Assembly: GCA_002189035.1 (NCBI GenBank)
Contig: NEEC01000015.1
Span: 496,001 to 560,000 of the forward strand
DNA: 64,000 bases
Reading direction: 5' to 3'
Source: Utricularia gibba
Taxonomy: Eukaryota; Streptophyta; Magnoliopsida; Lamiales; Lentibulariaceae
A program made the position numbers and the translations under genes. The notes beneath the pieces are model-generated. The model searched no databases and was not told the DNA's origin. It was given only the letters and a program-made list of their open reading frames with translations. Shown piece by piece: positions 18,969-35,317 of the stretch. The stretch's first letter is position 1. Each line of letters starts with the position of its first letter.

Positions 18969-19805
18969 CTATGGGAACTTTTGCAAGGTGTCATTTTGTC
19001 TATTCAGCTTGGTATCAATCAGATCTCCATCTTCCAGTTTCACCTGGGAATGCAATTCAAAGGAGAATGACACATTAGAAGCTGCGATTCTCCATTCATG
19101 CATGAAACAGGGGGAAGATAAAGAGACCTCATCTGGGGTGCTCTCCCCTCGGAGGCGATGACCACGGCACACGAAAACAAAGTGATCCCTCTCCACTTGT
19201 TGTTGGTAACAGTAAGCATTCATCAGTTTCCTCAGAGGGGTTGTTCTTTTCATCCTGAACAGCTTCACATCATCATCCTGCCCCTGTGGAAGCCATGGAA
19301 GGGGAGAACTCAACTCCTGCAGTGCCTTAGGAGACCTACCAGACAGACCTCTTTCTTGAGTTTGAGACAGATTTTGGTGGGCGGCTCATCTTCGTCCAGA
19401 TTTCGATGCAGAAACACATCAATCTCATCCCCATCTTCCAGTTTCATCTAAACAAGGGCATCATCAATGGCGTAACGTGAAAAATAGATAAGCCATCAGA
19501 CTACACAAGAAACAGAGTAGAAACCTGCCGTGGGGTGCTGTCGCCGAGGAGGGAACTGCCGCTGAACAAGAAATCAAAGGCATTCATCTCCGGACGTCGT
19601 CGGACACGAATACAATACGCATCCATCAGTTTCTGGAGCGGCGTTGTTGTTTTCATCCTGAAAATCCTTTCACTCCCACCCTGTGAATCGTCCGCAAAAC
19701 ATCATCTCACAGATGAAAGACAGAGGGAGGAGAGAGGGAGAAGAGTAAAACCCTTTTAACACGAAGGTTGATGCGTGCTGCCGCCGTCTCTTCTGCCGGC
19801 TCCAT
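18969..19805 (-). CDS. Di-SUMO-like protein: two fused SUMO folds, no C-terminal diglycine
   Basis: Five exons (19752-19805, 19525-19680, 19349-19447, 19128-19283, 18969-19043) join in phase to 179 residues. Each half repeats the SUMO exon pattern: a strand before an intron (RINLRVKR; KICLKLKKE), the FRMK..TPL.KLM.AYC core with LF.G..L.GDSTP (second copy FVCRGHRLRGESTP), then KLEDGDEID or KLEDGDLID. The first half ends DVFLHRNLDEDEPP and runs into the second without a diglycine. The second ends QNDTLQKFP, also without diglycine, so neither half should be conjugated like SUMO. Known two-SUMO proteins include the grass DSUL proteins and NIP45/Rad60-type proteins; this one differs in being short and bare. 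It lies beside a single-SUMO gene on the same strand, which suggests local duplication and fusion. Confidence 0.75.
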
Positions 19806-20096
19806 TCTCCGACCCTCCCCACTGGTTGCAGTAGGCATCACTATTTATACAACAGTACCAATGGAACCAAACCAAAAACGCATGATTAAAAATCAAATAT
19901 TATATTTTTAAATGAATATATGAATTTACTTTTATCTCATTTAAACTATTAAAAAACTATAAAAAATAATTTATCTTTAACGCATGTGCTAAATGCCTCT
20001 CTTTAGAGGGCAACTCATGAAATCACAAGCAATTTTTCAACTGTTTATTCCAAAGCCAAGAGTTTCCAGCTCTGAGAGGCAGCCGCATGCGCATAT

Positions 20097-20566
20097 TCAG
20101 ATGAAGTGGATGCGAGCTCCGCCGCCATACTGATGGACGAAAGCATCGATCTCGTCCCCGTCCTTCAGCTTCATCTGAACCAGCGGTAAAAGAAGAGGTA
20201 CTGTTATTTGCTATCACAAAGCTTTCACCTTCGAAAGCGTGCGTGCGTTGGGTTTATATAAAGCCCATATCTTGCCTGGCATGGCGTGTTCTCCTCTTGG
20301 AGACGAAGGCCATCCATCATGAACACGTAGTGCCCGGGCTGGACGCCACGCTCGTAACAGTATGCATTCATAAGTTTCTTCAGGGGGGTCATTTTCTTGA
20401 TCCTGAAGAATGTTCTGTTATCGTCCTGCGAGATGGGAGCCATTGCATATCTAAGTAACAGAAGGACAGGGATTAAGAGAAGAAGGGATGCAAGAATGAA
20501 GCAAAGCCAGACGCTGTCTTTGACTGTGAGATTGATGTGCGTGGAGTCTTCTTTGCCTGTCTCCAT
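20097..20566 (-). CDS. SUMO-like modifier with diglycine
   Basis: Three exons (20513-20566, 20276-20425, 20097-20174) give 93 residues. The intron positions match those of Arabidopsis SUMO genes as I recall them. Motifs: THINLTVKDS, then NRTFFRIKKMTPLKKLMNAYC, MMDGLRLQEENTP, KLKDGDEIDAFVHQYGG. The glycine pair at about residues 85-86, followed by a seven-residue tail, suggests it can be matured by a SUMO protease and conjugated. The first donor (AGC then GTCTGG) is weak. The second intron begins with GC (CAG then GCAAGA) and ends in AG, a legitimate minor class. A longer 220-residue frame (20225-20887) that reads through the first intron into upstream sequence is judged artefactual. The gene is divergent from ordinary SUMO1/2, closer to the minor plant isoforms. 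Confidence 0.72.
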
Positions 20567-21013
20567 TCTATGGGGCTGCAACTGAACGATTCTCCCTTCT
20601 CCGTGCCTCAAATACAAGTGGGGGGTGGAATTTATATCGACACAGAAGGAAACGGATCGCTTGAACCTCAGAGACCGTACTGCTCCAAGGGGTGTTAATG
20701 CTGCTGTTCTTTCACCTTCCAGACAGGTTTCCTCATCAAGGGTGTGCCCATTTATGTAAATCTTAACGCTTGGTTGATAGCCTGGGGCCATCTTTTGAGT
20801 TGTGCAGTTTTGAGCAGGTCTTTTTTGGTGAAAATGGACTGCAGAGGCCATCAGATTTATTGGGGAAAAGGGTGAATAGAACTCCAAGAAAGGAGTTTGA
20901 TTTCATTTCACTTGAGTGCACAGTATAGAGAGTGTGGCGGCTCTTTGCACAACACACAACGCAGCACCAGCACCTATAAAGTACAATACACAGCAGGATG
21001 GCACAAGCATCCT

Positions 21014-21847
21014 TCAAACCTGGGAGACAGGAGCTTGCCCGTTTTCGACACCTAAACCATACAAAACACCAGAGTACTTCTCCATTGGGCCGCTGAAGAA
21101 GTTCTCCCGCAGCTTTCTGAAGGTGCAGGATGTGAGCAGACTGTCGGAGCCGGCTTGATGGCAAACCCCGACTCTCTCCACCTCCAGGAGCTCAGCCAGC
21201 TTGTTCAATCCGCCGTGCAGGCTATTCGAGAACTTCATCAGATGCTTGATATCGTAAATCACAGGGAAGAATATACCCATCAAGCTGAAAAAACCCCCTT
21301 GGGAATCGGGTAAGTTGTGGCAAGTAAGAAGCTTGAGGAGGTATCCGAAGTCATAACCACTGTGGAATGTCACCCAGAAGACCTTATCGTTCAGGACAAT
21401 GCCTGATGACATTAGAAGCTCAGCGAAACGTCTAGCGTCGACGCCCTTCTCATTATTCGCACCGAAATCAATGCCACTTTGGCTCAGGAGTTCGATTGAA
21501 TCATTCGCAAAAACATCCTCATTGGGGTTGAATTCACGGAAGTTGAATTGCCAAATGCACTGTTTATCAGTCCCACAAGTAGGCAAGTTCCCCAGTTCGT
21601 CAGAAAACGTGAGTCCCAACTGAATCAGCTTCAACAAGTCTACATTGTCTTTCAATGTCTGGTAATGATAATCACTCGAGTTCTTGAAGTTGCCCACCGG
21701 ACGAAGAACAACCCCAGGAAACTCAGTGTCCATCGCGACGTAAGGGTACTCATCAACAATTTCACGAATCAAATCAAACTCCTGTTCCAAATTATCAGCC
21801 CAAACCTCCCGGATCTGAATCGAATCGCTTTTAGGCAAGAGTGACAT
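21014..21847 (-). CDS. CAF1: CCR4-associated factor 1 (CAF1), mRNA deadenylase
   Basis: A single-exon 277-residue protein starting at ATG 21845-21847. It is the DEDD-family 3'-5' exonuclease subunit of the CCR4-NOT complex, which shortens mRNA poly(A) tails in cytoplasm and P-bodies. The catalytic residues are visible: D and E in MDTEFPG, D in SGYDFGYLL, and the H...D pair in [11 protein letters not shown]. The N-terminal [13 protein letters not shown] and the core IQLGLTF are standard. Plants have many CAF1 paralogues (CAF1-1 to -11), usually intronless like this one, and I cannot say which. The 5' UTR may be spliced: a GTATGATTG donor-like site exists upstream on the minus strand at about 22205. 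Confidence 0.93.
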
Positions 21848-22600
21848 TTCCAGCAATTTTCACAAGACGGGGTCTTGGTTCTTTACCATTCAACGATCGA
21901 AGATTTTCGAGAGCCCCACAAGCGGATCTATCGAGATTATCGCCAGCTAATATCTGCAGAAACGTCACCGAGGAATCGCAATCAGGCCCAGACCGGAATT
22001 AAATCAAAACAATCTTACTTAAATTTGAACACGGAGTACAATACAACAGATCTACCGTGGAGCCCAGCGTTTCTAAACGAGATCAGTCGGAAAAAGAAAA
22101 ACTCGAACAAGACCAGCACAACCCCAAAAAGGTAATCGGGTAAAACCTAAAGCAGATCTACTATTCGCTCACCGCTTCTTCGCTAGTAATTTCTCAGATC
22201 AATCATACCTCAAGAACCCATATCCCAAAACAACATATTTCAGGAAAGGACCTCACCTCGTCGCCATAAAAAAAAAGGATACGCATCCAAATAAACCAAG
22301 ATCTAGATCCCTTCTGTTCACAGGAGTGCTGGGATCCCTACTGGGCATGCATATGTGTGAGAAAAAAAAGGCACAGTTCAGACCTTGGACGAAAAACACA
22401 CGCTGAGAAAACGGGATTTTGAATGTCCAGACGATGTATTTAACTACAGAAAAGGAAGAAGCAGAAGTCCAAATAAATACCCACTACCTTTTTTCTTCTT
22501 GAATTCGCTGCCGAGGCTCTCCACTCTCTCCCTCCTCCGCCTCCCTTCTCGGATGCTTTTACATTTAAATATTTATTTATTCCGTGTTTCCTAAATATTT
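21848..22600. promoter_or_regulatory. CAF1 5' UTR and promoter region
   Basis: No coding gene is supported. The sequence next to CAF1 probably contains a 5' UTR intron on the minus strand. A pyrimidine-rich tract at about 22508-22555 is typical of plant 5' UTR or promoter DNA. Confidence 0.35.
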
Positions 22601-32530: not shown

Positions 32531-33184
32531 TATATAATGAAATACACATCTCATATCATCATTCTTTCTCCTTTTATTCCTCTTACAATTTCAATGGCTT
32601 CCTCTCCTATTGAGATCCGGTTATACTAGGGAGGTAACTTGTTTTATGGAAACAATAGTGTGCTATGATTCACCACCACAATTTTCTGCTTGCGTTGCTC
32701 GAGATACCTCGATATCCTTGCTGCTGTCATTTATTTATGAAGTTATGCAACTATCTTCAACTGAGTATTCTATTACCATAATTGTGAATTATGTTACAAT
32801 GGATTTAATAATGGGTTTTCAGAGGTATTGCCATCATCTTAATCAAAACGAATGATAGTTTGTCTTTGATTTTTAATCAAAGTCATATGGTTTCAAGTGT
32901 TGATATGTATATTAGTGCAACTCCAAGCTTCCTGAATTTGATCATTCAACAACACACTGGTATGTAATTTTTTTTCAAATAACTTTATTATTATTAGTTT
33001 TAGATTACATTTAAGATATTTTTTTGAATTCATATGATTAATTTGTGCTAATGATATATTTTATGTTTTATTTCTAGTTAATGTTTGAAAATCATCAACC
33101 AGTCATAATAATCCATGCATTTTACCAATATATCACAATTCTTCACCATCAGAATCACCTTGTGATGAAGACATATTATGGTAT

Positions 33185-35317
33185 TTGAATCATTTATGTG
33201 AGGAAGATGCTACTGAGCAAGCTGAAAACGAAATGATGCAAGAAGTTATTCCATCTGCACTTTTTTCAAGTGATGATGATAATAAACAAATAGAAGTCAT
33301 GTTTTATGAAAGCGATGTGGCAATGGAAATTCCAATAGTAGTTGAGTTTGAAAAGACTTTAAAATTCTATGATGGGACAAGCGGTGATCCATGCAAGGAG
33401 ATTTTCTTCAAAGATAAAACTTCAATGAAGGTAACATTGAATTATTATTGTATCAAGAAGCTGAAAAGGCCTTTTCATGTTGAGAAGAGCAATAACAAGC
33501 AGTATGAAATAAACTGTATCAACCGAAATGCATCACCTCCATGTGAATGGCGTGTTAGAGTATGGAATAGCAGTGTCACTCAGTTTTGGACTGTGACACA
33601 ATACGAGAGGCCTCATACTTACTTTTCTACCAGTTCTAGAACTGCTAGAAATGATAGCATTACTAACAAATTTGTATCTCTTCATATCATGCACAAGGTT
33701 AAAGCAAATCCAGGGATACGTGTTTCTGATGTGATTGATGATATTGATGAAGTTTATCATTTCAATATATCATATAAGCTTGGATGGACTGCTATTAGGC
33801 GTGCTATCTTGCATATGTATGGTACTTGGAAGGAATCAATGACAAAGCTCCATTCTTATTTGTTATCAATTAAGGAATTCAACTCAAGTAATTCATTTTT
33901 ATTATTTTACAAATATTGATGTTTGTTTACTAACATATTTGTTTTATCACAGATACTATATTTGAATATGAGAATTTTCGTTCCCATGATGACAAGCAAA
34001 TGCTACATCATATATTTTGGGCTTTTGGATTATGCGTCCATGCTTTTAGGTATTGTCGTCCAATTATTACTGTTGATGTAACACATCTATATGCAGGATA
34101 TAGATATCACCTTTTAATAGCATGCATACTTGATGGTGACCGCACTATAATTCCACTTGCATTTTCTATTGTTGAGGAAGAATCTTATGAATCCGGCTAT
34201 TGGTTTTTTAACCTTTTGGTTAAGCATATCGTGAAAGGACGTCGTATTTGTCTAGTAACTGACCATGGTGCAGGATTATTATCTGCGATTAAGGATATAC
34301 CTGCTTTCAATGAGCCTATAGGAGATTACAGATTTTGTATGCAACATCTACTTGCAAATTTCATATCCCATTTCAGGTCGAAACATTTGGTTAATTTATT
34401 TTGGGAAGCTTCCTTGAGTTCAAAAAAAGAAAAGTTTCAGATAGCTATGCAGAAAATCAGAAATAAGAATGAGACAGCATTTGAGTATTTCCATGAAATC
34501 GATCCAAAGCGATGTACATTATCATATGATGATGGCATAAGGTAACTTGAAATGGTATAATTTTATTCATATTATTACTATGTTAACCTTATATTTCTTA
34601 TTTTTGTAGATGTAGTGTGCATACCATAAGTATCTCTAAATCATTAAACATTGTTTTACGTGGAGCACAAAGATTACCTCCAAAAGCTTTTGTTGAGACC
34701 ACTTTCAAGAGATGTGTTAAGATTTTCACAAATAGTAAAGTGAAGATGAATTTACTCATGAAAAGGGGTCAATTGCTTACTCCATATTCATTATCTGTGT
34801 ATAGGAAATGTGATGACTAATCAATCAACTACAGGATCAAGAAATACAATGCAGAGAAAATGAGTGCCACTGTGATGTCTCGGACCAAAAATTCTAGAAA
34901 AAAAAACATTATTATATTGTTTGTTTGACAGATTTGACATGTACTTATGGAAAGTGACTGCAAAAAACTATTTCATGTTCACATGCTATTCAGATAAGAA
35001 TTATCTTTTGATGTATCATGTTATTTGTAATATCATAACAGCTGTTAACTTTATTTCTCTCTTAGGTGTACAAGGAATTCAATGAAGATGCAAGTTCATA
35101 TATTTCAAAATATTATCAAGTGAAGACCCTTACGAAAATATATAAAAGGCAATTTAATCCACCAATTCTTGAAAGTGGATGGGATGCATTTCTATTTGAT
35201 CTTGTTCACAATCTAGCAAGAAGATTGAATACCAGAGGTCGTGCTAGATCAATACCATTTTTAAACAACTTAACTCATATACATTCGAAGAGAAAATCAA
35301 GAGTTGATATATTTTAA
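33185..35317 (+). pseudogene. MuDR-family transposase, probably inactive
   Basis: Coding pieces at about 33185-33889, 33953-34541, 34609-34820 and 35066-35317 can be joined by plausible GT-AG introns. The first contains a C..C..H zinc-binding region (NCINRNASPPCEWRVRVW, then ERPHTY). The second holds the DDE catalytic region, with TVDVTHLYAGYRY and LVTDHGAGLLSAI carrying two of the acidic residues. The third matches the ETTFKRCVKIF part of the family but ends in a stop at 34818-34820. The SWIM zinc finger normally next is absent. The last piece (SSYISKYYQVKT) resembles sequence that follows the SWIM finger. Loss of that finger suggests decay or internal deletion. Confidence 0.8.

What the first reader, a model, noticed from the sequence alone, without database searches (positions are those of the whole stretch)
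18969..20566. Cluster of SUMO-like genes, including a bare two-SUMO fusion without diglycine
Two neighbouring minus-strand genes encode SUMO folds with the same exon pattern. One is a single SUMO with a processable GG and an unusual tail. The other is a head-to-tail pair of SUMO folds in 179 residues with no GG at either end. Two-SUMO proteins are known (grass DSUL, NIP45/Rad60 type), but a short eudicot version made only of two diverged SUMO folds is not something I can name. It could act as a non-conjugatable SUMO mimic that binds SUMO-interacting motifs, or could be a decaying duplicate. The exon phases show how it arose: the last exon of one SUMO copy is fused to the first strand of the next.
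Basis: partly seen in the sequence, partly recalled or inferred. Interest (0 to 1): 0.72.

Follow-up and report, generated by a model that had tools for sequence, protein, structure and literature searches.

The report
Two fused SUMO-like domains, no diglycine
A small plant genome carries a compact gene that looks intact and encodes two joined SUMO-like domains without the tail needed to attach to other proteins, so its product, if made, probably works as a fixed docking partner; related fusions are already known from grasses.

Summary
On the minus strand, five exons (19805-18969) splice in frame into a 179-residue protein of two SUMO folds (Pfam Rad60-SLD, two stretches, E 1.2e-24), neither with a diglycine. 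Its neighbour (20566-20097) encodes a 93-residue SUMO with the GG at the usual place. Exon 3 is the last exon of unit 1 fused to the first exon of unit 2. In the genome (100 Mb, unnamed; probably Utricularia gibba) searches found two archetype SUMOs, one more SUMO-like gene and no second fusion. Changes in both units avoid positions conserved from yeast to human (p = 0.0002 and 0.016), but dN/dS between the units is 0.73, not distinguishable from 1. Most SIM-groove residues are kept. The acidic residue that binds the back of the E2 is Ser in unit 1 and Arg in unit 2; Asp-to-Arg there abolishes UBC9 binding of human NIP45. Most likely it is a non-conjugatable di-SUMO ligand for SIM proteins. 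Such concatemers are known from grasses (PMC6680281), so this is an apparently independent eudicot case of a known kind. Expression is untested.

The parts
19752..19805 (-). Gene A exon 1: start codon, 10-residue N-terminal tail and first strand of SUMO unit 1 (MEPAEETAAARINLRVKR)
   Evidence: phase-0 boundary as in the archetype SUMO
19525..19680 (-). Gene A exon 2: core of unit 1
19349..19447 (-). Gene A exon 3, the fused exon: end of unit 1 (19447-19400, MKLEDGDEIDVFLHRN), linker LDEDEPPT (19399-19376), first strand of unit 2 (19375-19349, KICLKLKKE)
   Evidence: the inner limits are set by eye on the alignment
19128..19283 (-). Gene A exon 4: core of unit 2
18969..19043 (-). Gene A exon 5: end of unit 2, tail DTLQKFP, stop; no diglycine
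19842..19849 (-). TATAAATA, 44 bases before the start codon of gene A
   Evidence: sequence; promoter function inferred
20513..20566 (-). Gene B exon 1 (METGKEDSTHINLTVKDS)
20276..20425 (-). Gene B exon 2: SUMO core
20097..20174 (-). Gene B exon 3: ends HQYGG-GARIHFI, diglycine at the canonical place
20631..20636 (-). TATAAA, 70 bases before the start codon of gene B
   Evidence: promoter function inferred

Best explanation
Gene A is a real, fast-evolving SUMO paralogue gene. A tandem array of three SUMO-like units (B, unit 1, unit 2) lost the DNA between the last two: the diglycine, stop and 3' end of unit 1, and the promoter, start codon and part of the N-terminal tail of unit 2. The result is one five-exon gene for a linear di-SUMO (shown: the anatomy of the locus; inferred: the deletion). 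Without a diglycine the protein cannot be matured, conjugated or cut by SUMO proteases (inferred from established SUMO chemistry). Both units keep most of the SIM-binding groove but have lost one acidic residue that binds the back of the E2. So it most likely acts as a free, uncleavable di-SUMO that binds proteins with one or several SUMO-interacting motifs and competes with, or stands in for, SUMO chains (inferred).
For: Two Rad60-SLD stretches, E 1.2e-24. Best of 155 solved-structure sequences matched is 4bkg, E 7.3e-24, a linear di-SUMO-2 (passages of PMC4083429; there isopeptide-linked SUMO-2 binds RNF4 with apparent KD 2.5 uM as tetramer, 13.5 as dimer, 59.5 as monomer, said to be in line with linear fusions). 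Frame open over 5 exons, 4 of 4 GT-AG introns, TATAAATA 44 bases upstream. Class-changing substitutions against the archetype avoid positions conserved in SUMO1, SUMO2, Smt3 and the archetype: unit 1, 4 of 33 conserved versus 22 of 41 variable, p = 0.00017; unit 2, 7 of 33 versus 20 of 42, p = 0.016. Exons of the units align better than their introns (z 2.2 to 11.2 against -1.0 to 2.8, 6 pairs each). Groove: F32, R/K33, K35, T38, K42, L43, A46, Y47 kept in both units; E2-back D63 is Ser and Arg, which lines up with NIP45 D394, whose change to Arg abrogates UBC9 binding (passages). Arabidopsis SUMO without GG still has interactors in yeast two-hybrid (PMC5714883, passages).
Against: No transcript, protein or orthologue data. 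dN/dS between the units is 0.73, no significant departure from 1 (2dlnL 0.7), so selection on the fusion itself is not shown; the lower ratios against the C412 archetype (0.40, 0.35) include that gene's own constraint, and against the C1 archetype unit 2 is at 0.55 and not significant (2dlnL 2.7). The weakest exon pair (z 2.2) lies below the best intron pair (z 2.8). Groove positions 30 and 31 differ from the archetype in both units, I34 is Met in both, R36 is Thr in unit 1 and R50 is Gln in unit 2. The other acidic stretch of the E2-back surface (EDGD) is kept in both units, so some E2 binding may remain. No structure was predicted. A short frame can stay open by chance for a while: no stop in 25%, 4.4% and 1.2% of neutral runs at 0.1, 0.3 and 0.5 substitutions per site.
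Confidence: 0.5

Rival explanations
1. A decaying or recently silenced duplicate: a birth-and-death product of a SUMO cluster, still open by chance, with no function.
For: dN/dS between units 0.73, not distinguishable from 1; units 46% identical to each other and about 51% to the archetype. Arabidopsis SUMO4, 6, 7 and 8 are called pseudogenes (PMC6680281, passages). The donor of intron 3 departs from the consensus.
Against: No stop or frame break in 179 codons, length changes only in whole codons, splice dinucleotides and a TATA box in place; substitutions avoid conserved positions in both units; exons conserved above introns on the whole. GTTT and GTCT donors are also used by the archetype SUMO genes here.
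Confidence: 0.28
2. A RENi-type (Rad60-Esc2-NIP45) adaptor whose second SUMO-like domain recruits the SUMO E2 by its back.
For: Same order of two SUMO-like domains without diglycine; the RENi family has two SUMO-like domains at the C-terminus (PMC2946365, passages). The EDGD stretch of the E2-back surface is kept.
Against: The acidic E2-contact residue (NIP45 D394) is Arg in unit 2 and Ser in unit 1, and D394R abrogates UBC9 binding. Only 10 residues precede unit 1. The units are about 51% identical to the plant archetype SUMO, whereas Rad60 SLDs share about 20-23% with SUMO.
Confidence: 0.05
3. Two separate single-SUMO transcripts rather than one fused gene.
For: None direct; only the absence of RNA data.
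Against: The folds are joined by one coding exon and a 65-base intron; no start codon lies between them, and unit 1 read on alone stops soon after running into that intron.
Confidence: 0.05
4. A developmental regulator like maize DSUL, with a reproductive role rather than a general SIM-ligand role.
For: DSUL is the closest plant gene architecture found in print here (PMC6680281); its role in maize reproduction is recalled, not read here.
Against: No expression data; DSUL arose by its own fusion in grasses; no sequence comparison with DSUL was made here.
Confidence: 0.12

Closest known systems
Grass GSUL2/DSUL concatemers (maize DSUL, rice Os07g38700 and Os07g38710; PMC6680281)
   Same: Head-to-tail fusion of SUMO-like domains at a tandem SUMO-like cluster; some lost internal and/or C-terminal diglycine
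   Different: Grass lineage with fusions of its own; here an apparently eudicot genome, two units, both without diglycine, next to a single SUMO with diglycine. DSUL sequences were not compared.
Linear di-SUMO-2 (PDB 4bkg)
   Same: Two SUMO folds in one chain; best solved-structure match
   Different: Two identical SUMO-2 copies (seen in the alignment; that it is a laboratory construct is recalled); here the units are 46% identical and natural
RENi proteins (Rad60, Esc2, NIP45)
   Same: Two SUMO-like domains, no diglycine
   Different: The SUMO-like domains sit at the C-terminus of a longer protein; NIP45 keeps the E2-contact acid, here Ser and Arg; the units here are far closer to true SUMO
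Divergent eudicot SUMO-like genes (SUL-gammaC, AtSUMO5; PMC6680281)
   Same: Fast-diverging SUMO paralogues of eudicots
   Different: No eudicot concatemer is mentioned in the sections read; whether this locus belongs to that lineage was not established

Membership tests
SUMO-like domain (Pfam Rad60-SLD, PF11976) | Profile match over the curated cut-off (23.8 bits) | tested here: met
   A 86.4 bits in two stretches, B 64.7 bits
Plant SUMO gene family | Introns in phase 0 at the two places where the archetype gene is split (after HINLKVKGQ and TPDE) | tested here: met
   Same boundaries in B, unit 1 and unit 2
Conjugatable SUMO | C-terminal diglycine after the last strand | tested here: not met
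   Absent in both units of A; present in B
SUMO-like concatemer of the GSUL2/DSUL kind | SUMO-like domains fused head to tail in one gene beside tandem SUMO-like genes | tested here: met
   the kind is described in PMC6680281
GSUL2/DSUL as a grass orthogroup | Descent from, or collinearity with, the grass locus | not testable with these tools
   No other plant genome was available for search
RENi family | Acidic E2-back contact in the second SUMO-like domain | tested here: not met
   Arg in unit 2, Ser in unit 1
RENi family | Longer N-terminal region before the two SUMO-like domains | tested here: not met
   Only 10 residues precede the first strand
SUL-gammaC lineage | Collinearity with SUL-gammaC regions of other eudicots | not testable with these tools
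   No other eudicot genome was available. Within the genome, window plus 40 kb on each side against 80 kb around the C409 SUMO-like gene gave 3 matches from 714 ORFs, all SUMO itself
Functional gene | Transcription of the predicted mRNA | not testable with these tools
   No RNA data

The most novel reading that the evidence does not exclude
A dedicated natural SUMO-chain mimic of a eudicot: a genetically fixed, protease-proof di-SUMO whose E2-back contact has been removed while the SIM grooves stay, so that it occupies tandem-SIM readers (for example SUMO-targeted ubiquitin ligases) without entering or feeding the conjugation cycle.
Probability: 0.25. Interest if true: 0.6.

Novelty: new variant of a known kind. 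Interest (0 to 1): 0.4.

Why it matters
If expressed, it would show that head-to-tail SUMO fusions without diglycine also arose outside grasses, with the fused exon still recording the step. Mostly kept SIM grooves together with a charge reversal at the E2-back contact would be a natural separation of functions, and so a ready test of what free, uncleavable SUMO chains do in a plant. As it stands it is one locus in one genome without expression data.

Tried and rejected
Synteny: 80 kb around the C409 SUMO-like gene against the window plus 40 kb on each side gave only SUMO-to-SUMO matches (3 rows from 714 ORFs), so the C409 gene and the cluster are not shown to be partners of a genome duplication. 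Regions around the two archetype genes were not compared for synteny. The CAF1-like neighbour has three close paralogues (C375, C328, C402; 86-94% identity); 11 SUMO sequences found nothing better than E 2.6 within about 1.5 kb of them. A 149-residue stretch of the aminotransferase neighbour has only its own match at E up to 1e-20. A domain tree left unit 1, unit 2 and B unresolved (0 of 8 inner branches well supported), so which unit is closest to B is open. The 95-residue stretch upstream of gene B's start has no Pfam match up to E 10; I leave it out of B because a TATAAA lies between its ATGs (20851, 20791) and B's start, which is an argument, not a proof. Further SUMO remnants in the window: none convincing (best outside the cluster E 0.054). 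High pairwise dS values are saturated and not used for dating; the C409 row is partly misaligned at its N-terminus. In one search the Lys of unit 2 at position 22 comes from gap placement (by eye Leu), and positions 49-50 of unit 1 lie beside its two-residue insertion, so its R50 is uncertain. Paper searches bearing on a eudicot di-SUMO: 7 papers; 1; 0; 4; 15 held at least 4 of 6 terms, 12 listed. I opened PMC6680281 (sections), PMC13380885, PMC12428226 and PMC5714883 (passages only); the others were seen as listings. None shows a eudicot two-SUMO gene, but alfalfa family members of up to 381 residues are reported, so a precedent under another name is possible.

Full report
What is there. The size, the plant gene content and the ca. 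100 Mb given for Utricularia gibba in PMC8333044 (passages) make that species likely; the name is not proven. On the minus strand lie two genes head to tail: B (20566-20097) and A (19805-18969), 291 bases apart. A splices to 179 residues through 4 of 4 GT-AG introns of 65-84 bases, all in phase 0; B splices to 93 residues with one GT-AG and one GC-AG intron. For intron 3 of A a second donor 9 bases on would give 182 residues.

Similarity and exon pattern. Pfam finds Rad60-SLD twice in A (E 1.2e-24) and once in B (6.9e-18). The best solved structure for A is a linear di-SUMO (4bkg, E 7.3e-24), aligned over residues 11-166. The archetype SUMO of the same genome (C412:1465k) breaks after HINLKVKGQ and after TPDE; B, unit 1 and unit 2 break at the same places. 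Exon 3 of A, 99 bases, is the end of unit 1 (MKLEDGDEIDVFLHRN), a linker (LDEDEPPT) and the first strand of unit 2 (KICLKLKKE). By eye the linker resembles the acidic N-terminal tail of plant SUMO, so the junction probably lies inside the tail of unit 2. The simplest origin is a deletion between two members of a tandem array (inferred).

How many such genes. A search of the whole genome with A gave 9 matches at E up to 1: 5 exons of A, one of B and 3 elsewhere (C412:1465k, C1:5790k, C409:2113k). The search with B also gave 9, at the same places. No second fusion was found; these searches score only the best candidates, and weak Rad60-SLD matches were not all examined. Identities over the domain: unit 1 to unit 2 45.9%, each to the C412 archetype 50.7% and 51.4%, B to it 55.4%.

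Selection. Codon-model estimates: unit 1 to unit 2, dN/dS 0.73, no significant departure from 1 (2dlnL 0.7); unit 1 to the C412 archetype 0.40 (6.0); unit 2 to it 0.35 (8.3); B to it 0.13 (22.4); against the C1 archetype 0.46 (4.8) for unit 1 and 0.55 (2.7, not significant) for unit 2. The first value is the fair one for the fusion and shows at most weak constraint; the others include the archetype's own conservation. Other signs of constraint: substitutions that change residue class fall on 4 of 33 conserved versus 22 of 41 variable positions in unit 1 (p = 0.00017), 7 of 33 versus 20 of 42 in unit 2 (p = 0.016), 6 of 35 versus 19 of 42 in B (p = 0.008). The classes were my choice; the plain changed/unchanged count gives p = 0.002, 0.021 and 0.011. 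Matching exons of the three units align with z 2.2 to 11.2 in 6 pairs, matching introns with z -1.0 to 2.8 in 6 pairs; the two ranges touch. A neutral simulation of two domains keeps both open in 25%, 4.4% and 1.2% of runs at 0.1, 0.3 and 0.5 substitutions per site. Together this argues that both units were under constraint for much of their history; it cannot exclude recent silencing.

Functional surfaces. With SUMO2 numbering, units 1 and 2 keep F32, K35, T38, K42, L43, A46 and Y47 of the SIM groove, and R33 as in the archetype. I34 is Met in both; position 30 is Arg and Lys, position 31 Ile and Leu; R36 is Thr in unit 1 and Arg in unit 2; R50 is Gln in unit 2 and uncertain in unit 1. Groove positions 31, 32, 34, 35 and 36 come from the QFI and IKR mutants of PMC12077520 (passages); the rest are recalled. 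The E2-back contact is an acid at position 63 (Glu67 of SUMO1, PMC12687455, section read). It is Ser in unit 1, Arg in unit 2, Asp in B and in the archetype. NIP45 D394 falls on this position if chain 3rd2 ends at residue 419, and D394R abrogates UBC9 binding (PMC10497417, passages). That paper bases the change on a corresponding Rad60 mutant; that this is the damage-sensitive rad60-E380R (PMC2946365, passages) is my inference. The other acidic stretch of the E2-back surface (EDGD) is kept in both units, so loss of E2 binding is a prediction.

Mechanism. Without diglycine A cannot be conjugated or cut (established SUMO chemistry; said of grass concatemers in PMC6680281). What is left is the SIM groove, twice. 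SUMO chains bind tandem SIMs more tightly than single SUMO does (PMC4083429, passages), and Arabidopsis SUMO without GG still has interactors (PMC5714883, passages). Hammoudi et al. (section read) report from other work that dominant-negative SUMO1/2 variants strongly activate plant defence. So a free di-SUMO could compete with SUMO chains at their readers. Every step after the gene model is inference.

Known or new. Grass genomes hold SUMO-like concatemers formed by independent fusions, several without diglycine (PMC6680281). Searches of an open-licence library showed no eudicot example in listings or in the few papers opened; that library lacks most subscription papers. I rate this as a new variant of a known kind: an apparently independent eudicot fusion with both diglycines gone and an E2-back charge reversal in one unit.

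Noticed in passing
G000:C1 near 5790951 (locus L013): The second archetype SUMO reads HQTG and then leaves the frame, losing the second glycine, by a difference in a run of G against the C412 copy; either a broken copy or an assembly error in a homopolymer.
   Followed up: partly
20225-20902: The frame of gene B stays open for 225 codons, from upstream of its start through intron 1; a retained intron 1 would code for a strongly hydrophobic stretch (VWLCFILASLLLLIPVLLLL). Probably a pyrimidine-rich intron read by chance.
   Followed up: partly
20175-20275: Intron 2 of gene B begins with GC, not GT (CAG|GCAAGA), a rare but known donor type.
   Followed up: no
G000:C409:2113065 (locus L014): A further SUMO-like gene with HQMGG, 46% identical to the archetype, in a region without detected collinearity to the window.
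   Followed up: partly
21014-21859: A single-exon gene that looks like a CAF1-type deadenylase (name recalled); three close paralogues elsewhere in the genome have no SUMO gene detected within about 1.5 kb.
   Followed up: partly
33089-34542: Open frames that look like a MULE/FAR1-type transposase (named by eye, no search run).
   Followed up: no
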